Assembly (NCBI GenBank): GCA_945869725.1
Contig: CAMBPO010000076.1
Location: 1-10,339 of the forward strand
Direction: 5' to 3'
DNA: 10,339 nt
DNA from: Klebsiella pneumoniae
GTDB lineage: Bacteria > Pseudomonadota > Gammaproteobacteria > Pseudomonadales > Pseudohongiellaceae
Shown piece after piece: positions 3,168 through 7,679 of the stretch; the stretch's first letter is position 1; each line of letters starts with the position of its first letter. The notes below the pieces were generated by a model. The model was given only the letters and a program-made list of their open reading frames with translations. It made no database searches and was not told the origin of the DNA. The position numbers and the translations under genes were made by a program.

Positions 3168-4052
3168 ATGAAAATGTTCAAGATTCTCAGCTTTTTGCTG
3201 CTGTTCAGTTACACAGGCTTGCTGGCGGCTGCACCGGAAGGCTGGGCGCCTTTGCTGGAGCCTGCAGAACTCAATCAGATATTGGCCGGGTCTGAAGAAG
3301 TACGCGTCATCACGGTGACCGGCGATTACGCCACGGGCCATATTCCGGGCGCCCTCAATGCACCTTATTCCGGTTTCAGAGGCCCGCAAACCAATGCCGG
3401 CCAACTACCCTCCATCGAGGCATTGACCGCAGTCGTGCAGCAACTAGGCATTACCCCGAAAACACCGGTGGCGATTGTGCATCAAGGAAGCTCTGACGTG
3501 GATATGGGTGCATCAACCCGTGTTTACTGGACATTGAAATCTCTGGGCATAGAAAATCTAGCAGTTTTGAACGGTGGTTTTGCCGCATGGCAAGCTGCCG
3601 GCCTGCCCGTGAGCACCGATGCCAACACGGTGGCAGCATCTGACTTTGTGCCGGCCTGGTCTGATGCATACACCGTGCATACCGCTGAGGTGGAGCAACT
3701 AGTCACCAATGATGCAGCGCGACTCATTGATGGTCGCCCCGCCGCATTTTTTGAAGGCACTCAAGTAACAGCCGCGCGCGCCGGTACCATCAAAGGCGCG
3801 GAGAACCTAAGTTTTGTCAGCTTTTTTAATCAGGCCAGCATGAAATCTGCAAGTGATCTGTCAAGCGTGTTGTCGGCAGCGTCCGCATCTGACGACGAGC
3901 TCACCGTCGCCTTCTGCAACACGGGTCACATGGCTTCAATTAACTGGTTTGTCATGAGTGAAGTGGCCGGCATGGAGAATGTAAAACTGTATGCCGAAAG
4001 TATTGTTGAGTGGGCGCAATCGCCGGATCGGCCGATGGACAATGAGCCTTGA
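3168..4052 (+). CDS. Exported two-domain rhodanese (sulfurtransferase), shorter paralog
   Basis: A 294-residue protein starting at the ATG at 3168, which has AGAGGA at 3154-3159 and opens a signal peptide (hydrophobic residues 4-21, cleavage near AAA-PEG). The frame is open further upstream, but that part overlaps the phosphatase in another frame and is discarded. The N-terminal rhodanese domain (about 25-150) has VTGDYATGHIPGA and LNGGFAAW. Its active-site loop VHQGSSD has no cysteine, so it is structural only. The C-terminal domain (about 165-285) has C250 in CNTGHMAS, the expected persulfide-carrying cysteine. Its likely role is sulfur transfer from thiosulfate or a related donor in the periplasm. 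By eye it is about two-thirds identical over the N-terminal domain to the paralog at 5147-6163. It lacks that paralog's last about 22 residues: it stops at MDNEP, immediately before a tandem repeat array. Confidence 0.87.
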   Translation: MKMFKILSFLLLFSYTGLLAAAPEGWAPLLEPAELNQILAGSEEVRVITVTGDYATGHIPGALNAPYSGFRGPQTNAGQLPSIEALTAVVQQLGITPKTPVAIVHQGSSDVDMGASTRVYWTLKSLGIENLAVLNGGFAAWQAAGLPVSTDANTVAASDFVPAWSDAYTVHTAEVEQLVTNDAARLIDGRPAAFFEGTQVTAARAGTIKGAENLSFVSFFNQASMKSASDLSSVLSAASASDDELTVAFCNTGHMASINWFVMSEVAGMENVKLYAESIVEWAQSPDRPMDNEP

Positions 4053-4105
4053 TCAGACCGGTCTGAACGGTCTGAACGGTCTGAACGGTCTGAACGGTCT
4101 GAACG
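4053..4105. repeat. 14-bp palindrome leading into five 9-bp tandem repeats
   Basis: Directly after the rhodanese stop, TCAGACCGGTCTGA (4053-4066) is a perfect palindrome whose right half begins five exact copies of GTCTGAACG (4061-4105). Because the period is 9 bp, readthrough of the TGA would encode a repeated Ser-Glu-Arg triplet, and the opposite strand an Asp-Arg-Ser triplet. Neither frame looks like a real protein. Confidence 0.9.
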
Positions 4106-4130
4106 ATGCGCGTTAACAAAAGGACGATCC

Positions 4131-4213
4131 GGCCAGTCAAGCACCGGGGCATTCCTCAGAACGGCGCTGCGCGCCTGATCGTTCTTCGCTCATGCCCCGG
4201 TGCTTGACTGGCC
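4131..4213 (-). repeat. Large stem-loop element, copy 1
   Basis: Two perfectly complementary 22-nt arms (4131-4152 and 4192-4213) flank a 39-nt core (4153-4191). Read on the minus strand the core is GAGCGA, AGAAC, GATCA, GGCGC, GCA, GCGCC, GTTCT, GAGGA. This folds as an internal loop (GAGCGA opposite GAGGA), a 5-bp stem AGAAC/GTTCT, a 5-nt bulge GATCA, and a 5-bp stem GGCGC/GCGCC closed by GCA. The core and fold recur in copies 2 and 3 with different outer arms. The stem is not followed by a T-tract, so it is not a standard intrinsic terminator. It lies 78 bp past the rhodanese stop, beyond the 9-bp tandem repeats, and is inverted relative to copy 2, 44 bp away. Confidence 0.85.
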
Positions 4214-4257
4214 TCTTCGCCACTTTCGGGCTGCAGTAGTGCTCAATCGCTGGCACC

Positions 4258-4340
4258 AGCCCACCGGTGGCCAGGATGAGAGCGAGGCACAATCAGGCGC
4301 GCAGCGCCGTGCCGAGGAACATTCCGGCTACCGGTGGGCT
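4258..4340 (+). repeat. Large stem-loop element, copy 2
   Basis: It has the same 22+39+22 geometry as copy 1 in the opposite orientation. The arms are 4258-4279 and 4319-4340; they pair at 18 Watson-Crick and 2 G-T positions, with 2 mismatches. The core at 4280-4318 reads GAGCGA, GGCAC, AATCA, GGCGC, GCA, GCGCC, GTGCC, GAGGA. The second stem is GGCAC/GTGCC here against AGAAC/GTTCT in copy 1, a compensatory change at two base pairs, with the wobble-tolerant outer stem also suggesting selection on a fold. It ends 10 bp from the stop codon of the minus-strand GNAT gene, so copies 1 and 2 together fill the gap between two converging genes. Confidence 0.82.
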
Positions 4341-4350
4341 TTCTCCAGCG

Positions 4351-4605
4351 TTAAACTGACGTCAGAAACCTGGCAACATACCAGCAACTGGCGCTGATGC
4401 TCAGATGCTCAGCGCTGGCCCACGCCAACCCATAATGAACCAGCTTTTCGGCAAGACCTTTGCCTCTGAGTTCCGATGGAACGTAGGTACGTGTAAAGTC
4501 CACGTGCTGACCTTGCAATTGATACTGCAGAATGGATTCAATTCCATTTGTGTCAATGGTAAAACAGAGTCGATCAGGATTATGAACAACAATGGAATCA
4601 CGCAT
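4351..4605 (-). CDS. Minimal GNAT-fold N-acetyltransferase (Acetyltransf_CG type)
   Basis: An 84-residue protein read on the minus strand from the ATG at 4605-4603; a TTG one codon upstream is also possible. It matches the short YjdJ/NATD1-like acetyltransferase pattern: FTID-x-NGIESILQYQL (strand-turn-strand, 15-30), then YVPSELRGKGLAEKLVHYGL (41-60). There R47-G-K-G50 is the acetyl-CoA pyrophosphate-binding loop. A strand follows with SASCWYVARFL (71-81), where the family usually has a P-x-C-x-Y motif. The family normally continues about 10 residues further (typically ending like RHPEY), so the C-terminus is slightly short, ending LTSV just before stem-loop copy 2. The substrate is unknown. 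The gene is divergent from the next one with only 15 bp between start codons. Confidence 0.72.
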   Translation of the reverse strand: MRDSIVVHNPDRLCFTIDTNGIESILQYQLQGQHVDFTRTYVPSELRGKGLAEKLVHYGLAWASAEHLSISASCWYVARFLTSV

Positions 4606-4620
4606 CAAGGAATCTCATCT

Positions 4621-4743: not shown

Positions 4744-5150
4744 AACCTTGCGCGTGCTGTAGTGGCAAACTGTTCTCCACCTGCTGCAGTCCATTCCTGT
4801 CGGGAAAAGCCTTCCCCAAAACAGTTAAACAATTGATGCGCTCGCGGTATGCAGCGTTTGCGCTGAGCGGCTATGGCCAGTACTTGTTAGACACCTGGCA
4901 TCCGGATTCCGCGCCGGCGGTCACTGCAGAAGACCTGGGCTCGGTAGATTCCAACTGGCTGGGGCTTGACATACTGGATTCCTCGCAACAGGGCGATAGC
5001 GGTACAGTGGAGTTCTGCGCTCGCTTCCTGGACGAAGATGGCAAGCCAAAAACCCACCGCGAAAACTCCCGGTTTGTTCGGATCAAAGGCCGCTGGTACT
5101 ACGTTGATGCCCTGTCGCTTGACTATCAAAGTGCAGGTATAGCGCCATGA
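4740..5150 (+). CDS. ychJ: YchJ-family SEC-C motif protein (UPF0225)
   Basis: A 136-residue cytoplasmic protein of the YchJ/UPF0225 family. Residues 4-16 (CACCSGKLFSTCC) form the N-terminal SEC-C-like zinc-binding motif, followed by PFLSGKAFPKTVKQLMRSRY, which is nearly diagnostic of the family. A typical YchJ core follows (YLLDTWHPDS, then VEFCARF, ENSRFVRIKGRWYYVDA). E. coli YchJ is about 152 residues and has a second SEC-C motif at the C-terminus. This protein ends soon after the WYYVD core, so it is the single-motif form. The biochemical role is not established in the family. The start is supported by AAGGGAG about 7 nt upstream. The start overlaps the preceding remnant (ATGA) and the stop overlaps the rhodanese start (ATGA), indicating translational coupling. 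Confidence 0.87.
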   Translation: MKPCACCSGKLFSTCCSPFLSGKAFPKTVKQLMRSRYAAFALSGYGQYLLDTWHPDSAPAVTAEDLGSVDSNWLGLDILDSSQQGDSGTVEFCARFLDEDGKPKTHRENSRFVRIKGRWYYVDALSLDYQSAGIAP

Positions 5151-6163
5151 ATAACAGTTTGATTCACAGGCTTCTGAAGTCGCCCTTCACGCGTGCGACA
5201 CGTTTGGCTGGTTTGATGCTGATGACGCTAATGATGCCTGGCTTCGTGCTGGCACAACCAGCGGATTGGTCGGTACTGCTGGAGCCGGCCGAACTGTCGG
5301 TATTATTGAACAGTACACCCAACGTACGTGTCATTCATGTGACCGGCAATTATGCAGATGGCCATATCCCGGGAGCTGCCGAGGCGCCCTATGCGCAATT
5401 CAGGGGTCCGCAGAACAATGCCGGATCATTGCCGCCACTACAGCATCTGACAGCACTGCTGCAAAAACTGGGCATCGATGCCAATACACCGGTGGTCGTG
5501 GTGCATCAGGGCAACAGCGCATCTGATATGGGAGCGGCCACCCGCGTCTATTGGACGCTCAAATCCCTGGGGGTCCACCAATTGGCTGTGCTGAACGGCG
5601 GCTTTAGCGCGTGGCGCGAACAGCAATTGCCCGTCAGCACAACCGCAAGCACTGTTGCACCGTCTGGCTATCAACCCGAGTGGAATGATGCGTGGCAAAT
5701 CAGCGCATCCGCACTTGAGTCCGCTCTGAAACCCACTGATAAATCCAGCCAGTCGAACCCGAACATACGCTTGTTTGACGCACGGCCCAGCAGTTTTTTT
5801 ACCGGGCAACAATCCGTTGCAGTGCGTCCCGGCACTATCCGCGGCGCCAACAACCTGAGTTACGAGACATGGTTTGATAACAACCGCCTGAAGCCACTTC
5901 ATGAACTGGACATCCTGTTTGCCAGCAACCTGACCGACTCGTACAACAGCACTATCACCTTCTGTAACACCGGGCACTGGGCCTCTATCAACTGGTTTGT
6001 GATCAGTGAACTCGCCGGTGTCGCCAACACCCAACTGTATGCGGAAAGTGTAGTTGACTGGGCGCAATCCAACCGCCCAATGGATAATCAACCCGGTCGA
6101 CTTGCTTTTTATTGGTCGTTAACCCGCGACTGGATGCAGTCTTGGGCAGGATCAACTCCATGA
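5147..6163 (+). CDS. Exported two-domain rhodanese (sulfurtransferase), longer paralog
   Basis: A 338-residue protein with an N-terminal export signal (hydrophobic residues 19-36, likely cleavage after VLA-Q). The first rhodanese domain (about 42-165) carries VTGNYADGHIPGA and LNGGFSAW but, like its paralog at 3168-4052, has VHQGNSA instead of a catalytic cysteine. The second domain (about 180-305) has C273 in the loop CNTGHWAS, the expected persulfide site. The tail after MDNQP (GRLAFYWSLTRDWMQSWAG) is absent from the upstream paralog. It overlaps the YchJ-type gene by ATGA and the YeeE/YedE transporter start by ATGA. The pairing with a YeeE/YedE transporter supports a role in uptake and handling of thiosulfate-type sulfur. 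The donor and acceptor cannot be read from sequence. Confidence 0.88.
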   Translation: MNNSLIHRLLKSPFTRATRLAGLMLMTLMMPGFVLAQPADWSVLLEPAELSVLLNSTPNVRVIHVTGNYADGHIPGAAEAPYAQFRGPQNNAGSLPPLQHLTALLQKLGIDANTPVVVVHQGNSASDMGAATRVYWTLKSLGVHQLAVLNGGFSAWREQQLPVSTTASTVAPSGYQPEWNDAWQISASALESALKPTDKSSQSNPNIRLFDARPSSFFTGQQSVAVRPGTIRGANNLSYETWFDNNRLKPLHELDILFASNLTDSYNSTITFCNTGHWASINWFVISELAGVANTQLYAESVVDWAQSNRPMDNQPGRLAFYWSLTRDWMQSWAGSTP

Positions 6164-7467: not shown

Positions 7468-7484
7468 GAAATGGATATGTGCTC

Positions 7485-7624
7485 AGTCGACAAGTCAGGC
7501 GGGGAAACGGAGGTGAGCATAGTCGATAAGTCAGGCGGGGAAACGGAGGTGAGCTAGTCGATAAGTCAGGCGGGTAAACGGAGGTAAGCTAGTCGATAAG
7601 TCAGGCGGGGAAACGGAGGTGAGC
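7485..7624. repeat. Four tandem 35-bp repeats leading into stem-loop copy 3
   Basis: Units begin with AGTCGA and run 7485-7520 (36 bp), 7521-7555, 7556-7590 and 7591-7624. Each contains TCAGGCGGGGAAACGGAGGT, the left arm of stem-loop copy 3, and ends in GAGC, the first four bases of the stem-loop core. The third unit has two substitutions (GGGTAAACG and GGTAAGC). Only the last unit continues into a full core, so the upstream units look like duplicated left arms. The array starts 17 bp past the transporter stop. The 337-bp gap it sits in has no credible gene. Confidence 0.92.
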
Positions 7625-7679
7625 GAGCAACAATCAGACGCGCAGCGTCGTTGCGAGTAACCTCCGTTTCCCCGCCTGA
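7601..7679 (+). repeat. Large stem-loop element, copy 3
   Basis: Perfect 20-bp arms (7601-7620 and 7660-7679) enclose a 39-nt core (7621-7659). It reads GAGCGA, GCAAC, AATCA, GACGC, GCA, GCGTC, GTTGC, GAGTA. The second stem is GCAAC/GTTGC and the third GACGC/GCGTC, so relative to copies 1 and 2 the changes are again compensatory in both stems. The outer arms are unrelated in sequence to those of the other copies. There is no T-tract after the right arm. Confidence 0.85.

What the first reader, a model, noticed from the sequence alone, without database searches (positions are those of the whole stretch)
4131..4340. A dispersed stem-loop family with conserved core and unrelated outer stems
Elements at 4131-4213 (minus), 4258-4340 (plus) and 7601-7679 (plus) share a 39-nt core of exactly equal length and order: GAGCGA, 5-nt stem, (A/G)ATCA bulge, 5-nt stem, GCA loop, returning strands, GAG(G/T)A. 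The outer stems are 20-22 bp, perfect or nearly so, yet share no sequence between copies. In ordinary inverted-repeat elements the arms are conserved and the centre drifts; here it is reversed. This fits an element whose core is inserted or copied into, or together with, a palindrome made from local DNA, or a structured RNA constrained only in pairing at its base. I do not recognise it as a named REP, attC, MITE or RNA family.
Basis: partly seen in the sequence, partly recalled or inferred. Interest (0 to 1): 0.87.

Follow-up and report, generated by a model that had tools for sequence, protein, structure and literature searches.

The report
Conserved-cap, variable-stem bacterial hairpin family
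Marine bacteria related to Pseudohongiella carry many long hairpins just after their genes whose tip is nearly the same everywhere while the stem keeps its pairing but not its letters, which looks like a new branch of the known REP-like bacterial repeats and not yet a new kind of system.

Summary
They belong to a dispersed family: 11 of 15 held genomes of one Pseudohongiella-like genus match, 3 to 35 copies each, and none of 41 other-genus genomes in the same search. Rfam has no match at gathering threshold. In 150 copies, 29 of 30 pairs show two-sided changes and 95.3% of cells pair. The stems are not wholly unrelated: a weak consensus exists. The copies lie outside called genes, mostly after gene 3' ends, rarely between divergent genes, some as head-to-head pairs. 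Mismatches, loops and folding energy point to one strand as the folded one; near a gene end that strand usually runs opposite to the gene (92:35). At one orthologous locus, perhaps three, the cap was replaced while the stem stayed. Best reading: a new, genus-restricted, REP-like hairpin family whose cap is a recognition site and whose stem is a clamp. What reads the cap is not shown.

The parts
4131..4213 (-). Element E1: 22-bp perfect stem + 39-nt cap (type A)
   Evidence: counterparts with a like stem in G011, G002 and G006, missing from G001
4153..4191 (-). 39-nt cap of E1: GAGCGA-AGAAC-GATCA-GGCGC-GCA-GCGCC-GTTCT-GAGGA
4258..4340 (+). Element E2: 22-column stem (18 Watson-Crick, 2 G.U) + 39-nt cap
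   Evidence: counterparts in G001, G011, G002, G006
4280..4318 (+). 39-nt cap of E2: GAGCGA-GGCAC-AATCA-GGCGC-GCA-GCGCC-GTGCC-GAGGA
4214..4257 (.). Spacer between E1 and E2; the pair is divergent with 5' ends facing each other; the same spacing in G011, G002 and G006 (as an inverted block in G006)
7601..7679 (+). Element E3: 20-bp perfect stem + 39-nt cap
   Evidence: counterpart in G001, deletion remnant in G011, opposite-strand copy with another cap type in G002, absent in G006
7621..7659 (+). 39-nt cap of E3: GAGCGA-GCAAC-AATCA-GACGC-GCA-GCGTC-GTTGC-GAGTA
7484..7600 (+). Tandem copies (35-36 bp apart) of the E3 left arm plus the first four cap letters (GAGC)
   Evidence: family D1

Best explanation
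The three hairpins belong to a genus-restricted family of repetitive extragenic stem-loops that works like REP elements. The strand carrying GAGCGA...GAGGA folds into a long hairpin. Its cap (tandem G.A mismatch, 5-6-nt one-sided bulge, GNA triloop) is the part kept alike between loci, so it is most likely a recognition site for a protein that binds single-stranded hairpins (DNA or RNA). The 20-30-bp stem acts as a clamp that presents the cap and is kept by compensatory change more than by sequence. The elements sit after gene ends, singly or as head-to-head pairs, and are now mostly inherited with the locus, with occasional inversion, deletion and cap replacement. SHOWN by computation: the family, its structure, covariation, position, orientation and strand signals, restriction to one genus within what was searched, and cap replacement at one clear locus. 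INFERRED: a cap-binding protein, REP-like spread by single-strand transposition or conversion, and absence of an essential host function.
For: Copies. Covariation: 29 of 30 pairs changed on both sides, 95.3% of cells paired against 63.3% in shuffles. Inner stem types pair exactly, e.g. AGAAC/GTTCT 28, GCAAC/GTTGC 21, AGGAC/GTCCT 21, GGAAC/GTTCC 19 of 144. Strand signal: G.T against A.C mismatches 48:23 in type A and 18:4 in type B, counted once per locus group, position and kind; by locus group 24 lean to G.T, 10 to A.C, 18 tie (p 0.02); 104 of 144 loops are GNA; the cap strand folds more stably than its complement in 79 of 85 (RNA) and 77 of 85 (DNA) distinct caps. Location: 78 tandem, 63 convergent, 2 divergent, 7 at locus edges of 150; 0 of 150 overlap a called gene. 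Pairs: 21 of 27 neighbouring pairs are -+, 11 of 16 counted once per linked locus. Cap replacement: G005 L181:1328 against G006 L191:1217, stems 1 edit in 40 letters, apical module 12 edits in 28-31. The location pattern and head-to-head dimers match what was reported for REPs (PMC3733652: abstract, passages and one section seen).
Against: No transposase was found with the element: 0 matches in 24 loci around Y1-transposase genes of 15 genus genomes, and the eight short Y1 genes whose flanks I printed have GGGG(A/T)CGGAG repeats of their own. No clean gain by insertion was seen: the absences read look like deletions (G001 at E1, G006 at leuA) or could not be polarised (G006 at E3). The strand signal depends on how relatives are grouped: a coarser grouping gave 25:21 (p 0.66). 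A GC-skew regression puts the folded strand on the C-rich side (intercept -0.0138, se 0.004, relatives not removed), which does not fit folding on the lagging-strand template if skew has its usual sign. At most 39 matches in a genome (G002), few for a REP family.
Confidence: 0.5

Rival explanations
1. An RNA element of gene 3' ends: the hairpin is transcribed and blocks 3' exonucleases, or stops or limits transcription running in from the opposite side (the cap strand usually faces away from the nearest gene, so it would meet antisense or convergent read-through).
For: After gene ends, median 68 nt from the upstream stop codon in the 78 tandem cases; covariation with G.U tolerance; cap strand opposite to the nearest gene end in 92 of 127 within 150 nt; at one convergent locus in three genomes (L154, L181, L191) one element lies 25-28 nt from each stop codon; several species without this cap have other hairpins at the leuA and prfC 3' ends that I folded.
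Against: No T-tract: 4 of 150 have TTTT within 16 nt on the right side and 11 of 150 AAAA on the left. In the orientation in which the adjacent gene's own mRNA would usually carry it, the strand is the complement of the one whose pairing looks selected. In tandem-opposite cases the cap strand would be antisense to both genes, yet G.T still exceeds A.C there (11:3, raw counts).
Confidence: 0.3
2. Cap insertion: the roughly 39-nt cap is itself a mobile or converted unit that enters pre-existing palindromes such as terminators.
For: Cap type replaced on nearly unchanged stems at the L181/L191/L087 locus and, less cleanly, at L158/L167/L188 and L079/L179; tandem cores with different inner stems at one site (L076); a second conserved-cap, variable-stem family at gene ends of the genus.
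Against: No core-less palindrome with the same stem was seen at the orthologous sites read by eye. Most listed pairs with closely similar stems keep the same cap type. Stems share a weak consensus next to the cap, which independent host palindromes would not.
Confidence: 0.12
3. Pure DNA process: an old, functionless repeat whose arms stay complementary because template switching in palindromes copies one arm onto the other.
For: Inversions at orthologous loci; tandem partial copies; 39 two-sided Watson-Crick changes in 36 orthologous pairs.
Against: The 18 closest pairs show single-sided changes almost throughout (2 two-sided), as stepwise change would. The G.T over A.C excess is strand-specific and a symmetric DNA process does not predict it, but it depends on the grouping. 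The internal loop is far more conserved than the flanks (1.6% against 25.8% differences, pairs pre-selected for similar arms).
Confidence: 0.08

Closest known systems
REP / GTAG-tagged repetitive extragenic palindromes and their RAYT (TnpA-REP) transposases
   Same: Dispersed extragenic hairpins after gene 3' ends, mostly between tandem and convergent genes, often head-to-head dimers; E. coli REPs need a bulge in the stem for activity (PMC3733652 and PMC8266576: passages seen)
   Different: No GTAG tag at the foot (1 of 101), length about 80 bp and more against 20-40 bp, cap conserved and stem variable, not found beside RAYT genes
CGTC-tagged REPs
   Same: Type B members here have CGTC or TGTC in the internal loop; CGTC REPs also lack a known transposase and favour head-to-head dimers (PMC3733652, passages seen)
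   Different: CGTC REPs have 8-9-bp stems beginning AT and 4-5-nt loops; here two 5-6-bp stems, a one-sided bulge and a long variable outer stem; the CGTC is inside, not at the foot
Stem-loop sequence (SLS) families of bacterial genomes (Cozzuto et al. 2008)
   Same: Repeated intergenic families sharing a secondary structure (PMC2267715, abstract and outline seen)
   Different: Whether this family is among their 92 was not checked; their 40 genomes were not compared with this genus
IS200/IS605 ends and integron attC sites (recalled, not tested here)
   Same: Function through a folded single strand with extrahelical bases
   Different: There the base or boxes near it are recognised and the loop varies; here the apex is constant and the base varies; no such recombinase was linked to it

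Membership tests
REP (GTAG) family | Extragenic palindromes in several to many copies after gene ends, often as inverted dimers | tested here: met
REP (GTAG) family | GTAG tetranucleotide at the foot of the hairpin | tested here: not met
   GTAG within 12 nt of the 5' foot in 1 of 101 type A copies, about 2.8 expected by composition; the left flank is enriched for TGGCAC instead, 18 of 73 locus groups
REP (GTAG) family | Element beside a RAYT gene | tested here: not met
   0 matches in 24 Y1-transposase loci; eight printed short-Y1 flanks carry GGGG(A/T)CGGAG repeats instead
REP (GTAG) family | 20-40 bp total length | tested here: not met
   most matches 70-83 nt; stems extend to 34 pairs
CGTC REP family | CGTC at one end, 8-9-bp stem starting with AT, 4-5-nt loop, CCA tail | tested here: not met
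   CGTC within 12 nt of the 5' foot in 3 of 101 type A copies; type B has it in the internal loop with 5- to 6-bp inner stems
Any Rfam family | Score at or above the gathering threshold | tested here: not met
   0 matches in the window; at E up to 1 six hits in 4100-4400, all far below their gathering scores, five to microRNA families (best MIR8622, E 3.4e-7, 45 bits against 197) and one to an sRNA
Intrinsic terminator | G+C-rich hairpin followed by a run of T | tested here: not met
   TTTT within 16 nt in 4 of 150, AAAA on the other side in 11 of 150
Active mobile element | Clean insertion against an empty site | tested here: inconclusive
   absences seen look like deletions or could not be polarised
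Structured RNA | Transcription and a function of the RNA | not testable with these tools
   no expression data held

The most novel reading that the evidence does not exclude
The cap is a roughly 40-nt mobile cassette that replaces the tips of hairpins at gene ends without disturbing their stems, by strand exchange at the conserved GA-mismatch junction of folded single-stranded DNA, and several such cap families compete for the same gene 3' ends.
Probability: 0.1. Interest if true: 0.85.

Novelty: new variant of a known kind. Interest (0 to 1): 0.52.

Why it matters
REP-like repeats are usually described by a conserved short stem and tag. A family in which the apex is fixed and the stem is nearly free, with strong covariation and a one-strand signal, shows that such repeats could be missed by searches for conserved stems and gives a natural test set for what reads a folded hairpin tip. 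The cap replacement, if confirmed in close strains, would show sequence exchange on a scale of about 40 nt.

Tried and rejected
Rfam at gathering and relaxed threshold: no credible family. Viral contigs with a strict cap pattern: 0 stretches. RAYT/Y1 transposase as a carrier: not found as neighbour. The number of copies per genome is higher where a short Y1 gene is present (one-sided Mann-Whitney p 0.01; 15 genomes sorted by me, the truncated G009 gene counted as present), but kinship is not corrected for, and G005 (20 copies) and G014 (6) have none found. Nesting inside GGGGACGGAG palindromes: 35 of 150 have such a word within 200 nt on either side, against 0.19 words per 400 bases over all loci held; not pursued. 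Intrinsic terminators: no T-tract. A first de-duplication of mismatches by arm similarity alone merged 86 of 103 copies into one cluster and gave no strand signal (25:21, p 0.66). I replaced it by grouping that also requires flank homology and got 48:23; a reader should weigh that choice. G128, the single match outside the genus with the core model, lies in a stretch whose fold lacks the long outer stem and is taken as chance. The second cap family was sought in 185 class genomes with one pattern: 1 genome with a 1-mismatch hit, not read; the pattern also missed G001, so it says little. Literature: for Pseudohongiella with repeat, 41 papers held both words and I saw the listing of 15; Pseudohongiella with palindromic gave 0; three searches on REP-like or conserved-loop hairpins listed 0, 7 and 1 papers. 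None of the listings seen describes this family; the library is open PMC text only.

Rows dropped: of 157 matches at E up to 0.01 the 150 best were aligned; of these, 6 shorter than 70 nt were left out of cap counts (144); the arm table used 98 type A copies after removing duplicates, two copies with many mismatches and any lacking 20 pairs; the mismatch test used 129 (103 type A, 26 type B). Gene calls are from a home-made ORF caller that missed or shortened some window genes (DUF454 1358-1780, GNAT 4351-4608; compare), so context counts are approximate. Not every match was listed or fetched, so the 150 are not all copies of the seven genomes, and many are orthologues of one another.

Full report
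WHAT IS THERE. Each folds on its own far more stably than shuffles. By Pfam the window genes include a TPR protein, a DUF454 protein, a PAP2 protein, two rhodanese paralogues, a small GNAT, a YchJ-like protein, a sulphur transporter and a DUF1800 protein. E1 and E2 lie between a rhodanese gene (+, ends 4052) and the GNAT gene (-, 4351-4608), so at convergent 3' ends, each with its cap strand opposite to the nearer gene; E3 lies after the transporter gene with its cap strand the same as the gene.

FAMILY. The window's own assembly is not held; its nearest relative is G001. A covariance model of nine copies found matches in 11 of 56 genomes, all within one genus (11 of 15), 3 to 35 each, none in 41 genomes of other genera; the filters used there lose weak matches. 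With a cap-only model, 5 of 293 genomes of the order matched (four of the genus and one probable chance hit, G128) and 1 of 321 of the class (G001). A strict cap pattern matched 35 stretches in GTDB contigs, titled Pseudohongiella sp. or Gammaproteobacteria bacterium (LSUCC0112, UBA6173, RE-18aug17-195), plus a bin labelled Rhodoferax whose locus is syntenic with the window (G011) and so looks misnamed. A shorter cap, GAGCGA GGG TGTA CCC GAGGA, occurs exactly at 14 places in five genus genomes (G007, G008, G009, G010, G014), on several quite different stems; with it 13 of the 15 genus genomes carry some form.

ANATOMY FROM 150 COPIES. The apical module is NNNAC, bulge AATCA (93 of 144) or AATAAA (24 of 144), stem GGCGC or GACGC(C), triloop GNA (104 of 144), returning strands. 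The internal loop has several forms: GAGCGA/GAGGA (type A, most), GTCGA/GAGAC and like (type B), and others; types A and B share a C-GA/GA-G tandem mismatch (read). On the model-fitted alignment (146 distinct rows) 29 of 30 pairs show changes on both sides, 95.3% of cells pair (shuffles 63.3%, slid structures 28-46%), and no shuffle of 500 reached any of the five measures. That alignment leans to the model and many rows are related, but the inner-stem table shows the same exact pairing. Outer stems run to 34 pairs, allowing G.U and single mismatches.

THE STEMS ARE NOT QUITE UNRELATED. Across 98 type A copies position 5 from the cap is G-C in 94, and a pattern like C..CGG...CGGGA.GT recurs; over 44 locus groups the left arm holds about 8.9 bits, roughly 8 after small-sample correction. 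So the stems look like descendants of related sequences that drifted while keeping pairing, not independent local palindromes.

WHICH STRAND FOLDS. Counted once per locus group, position and kind, G.T mismatches exceed A.C on the cap strand: 48:23 in type A (p 0.004) and 18:4 in type B (p 0.004; the best of five offsets was used to place type B arms); by whole group 24 lean to G.T, 10 to A.C and 18 tie (p 0.02). A coarser grouping by arm similarity alone gave no excess (25:21), having merged 86 copies. GNA loops and lower folding energy of the cap strand (79 of 85 distinct type A caps as RNA, 77 of 85 as DNA) agree. GNA triloops closed by C-G are known as very stable DNA mini-hairpins (recalled; one search is a listing of papers that hold GCGAAGC and 'extraordinarily stable').

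WHERE THEY SIT. Of 150, none overlaps a called gene; 78 lie between tandem, 63 between convergent and 2 between divergent genes, 7 at locus edges; intergenic gaps of 100 bases or more in the same loci were 99 tandem, 56 convergent and 32 divergent (home-made gene caller). Within 150 nt of a gene 3' end the cap strand is opposite to that gene in 92 and the same in 35 (p 4e-7; by linked loci 26 to 8 with one tie). Of 27 neighbouring pairs 21 are divergent (-+), 49-256 bases apart; counted once per linked locus, 11 of 16. TGGCAC is enriched in the left flank, 18 of 73 locus groups against at most 10 for any 6-mer in shuffles. After correcting for gene orientation the cap strand has negative GC skew (intercept -0.0138, se 0.004; relatives not removed), which speaks against folding on the lagging-strand template if skew has its usual sign here.

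HISTORY AT ORTHOLOGOUS LOCI. E1 and E2 have counterparts with like stems in G011, G002 and G006; in G006 the whole pair is inverted; G001 lacks E1, probably by deletion. E3 is present in G001, a deletion remnant in G011, an opposite-strand copy with another cap type and an inserted stretch in G002, and absent in G006. At a further locus G001 has one element on the opposite strand where G011 has a pair; its left flank matches that of one G011 copy and its right flank that of the other, so inversion and loss are mixed there. At leuA, G006 has lost the element together with the end of the gene. In 29 orthologous type A pairs chosen for similar stems, differences per base were 1.6% in the internal loop, 8.6% in the apical module, 8.8% in the stem (biased low by the choice) and 25.8% in the flanks (24 of the 29 pairs); stem and apical module do not differ significantly (p 0.28). 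So within a locus the apical module is no more conserved than a similar stem; its likeness between loci is what stands out. In 36 close pairs (types A and B) there were 39 two-sided Watson-Crick changes, 23 single changes involving G.U, 12 A.C, 28 other mismatches and 5 two-sided non-pairs. Against this background one locus is clear-cut: G005 L181:1328 has the AGAAC-AATCA-GGCGC cap while G006 L191:1217 and G002 L087 have GGGAC-AATAAA-GACGCC on stems that differ by 1-2 of 40 letters; L158/L167/L188 (stems 5-6 differences, caps 13-14, homology to about 560 flank bases) and L079/L179 (10 and 14) are weaker cases. Most pairs with closely similar stems in that list keep their cap type.

OTHER HAIRPINS AT THE SAME GENE ENDS. 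At the prfC and leuA 3' ends several species without this cap carry another hairpin, some with a second conserved cap (GA(G/C)ACGCCCGTGAA...CCCTG...GGGCTCG) on varying stems. This suggests that gene ends in this genus often host hairpins and that this is one of several families.

WHAT IT IS. Location, dimer geometry and dispersal are those of REP-like repeats (PMC3733652: abstract, passages, section 15), and a bulge matters for E. coli TnpA-REP activity (PMC8266576: passages). But the tags, size and transposase association that define GTAG or CGTC REPs were tested and not met. I therefore file it as REP-like and as a new variant, not as a REP. The listings seen in the searches named under Tried and rejected do not describe it; the library holds open PMC papers only.

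Noticed in passing
L243, L247, L248, L249, L250, L256, L135, L153 (prfC and leuA 3' regions and others): A second hairpin family with a conserved cap (GA(G/C)ACGCCCGTGAACCCATCCCTGGGGGGCTCG ... ACGCTCC or ACGGTCC) on differing stems, at gene ends in the same genus.
   Followed up: partly
L106-L113, flanks of short Y1 transposase genes: Eight short RAYT-like genes (open frames of 235-261 aa) with GGGG(A/T)CGGAG repeats beside them, mostly long perfect palindromes such as GGGGACGGAGGGATCAAAATTTGATCCCTCCGTCCCC, probably their own REP.
   Followed up: partly
window 4053-4105: Several head-to-tail copies of a 9-bp unit (GGTCTGAAC) just after the first rhodanese gene.
   Followed up: no
window 3168-4052 and 5147-6163: Two rhodanese-domain paralogues, 70-76% identical in three long DNA blocks, flanking the GNAT and YchJ-like genes.
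   Followed up: no
L096, L101, L104 (G009): Three short-cap hairpins share outer inverted ends (GCGGTCTACGTCCCC and like), as a small MITE around the hairpin would.
   Followed up: no
L044, L046, L056, L057 (contigs CALQJO02): A bin labelled Rhodoferax sp. OV413 carries this family and, through G011, is syntenic with the window, so it is probably mislabelled.
   Followed up: no
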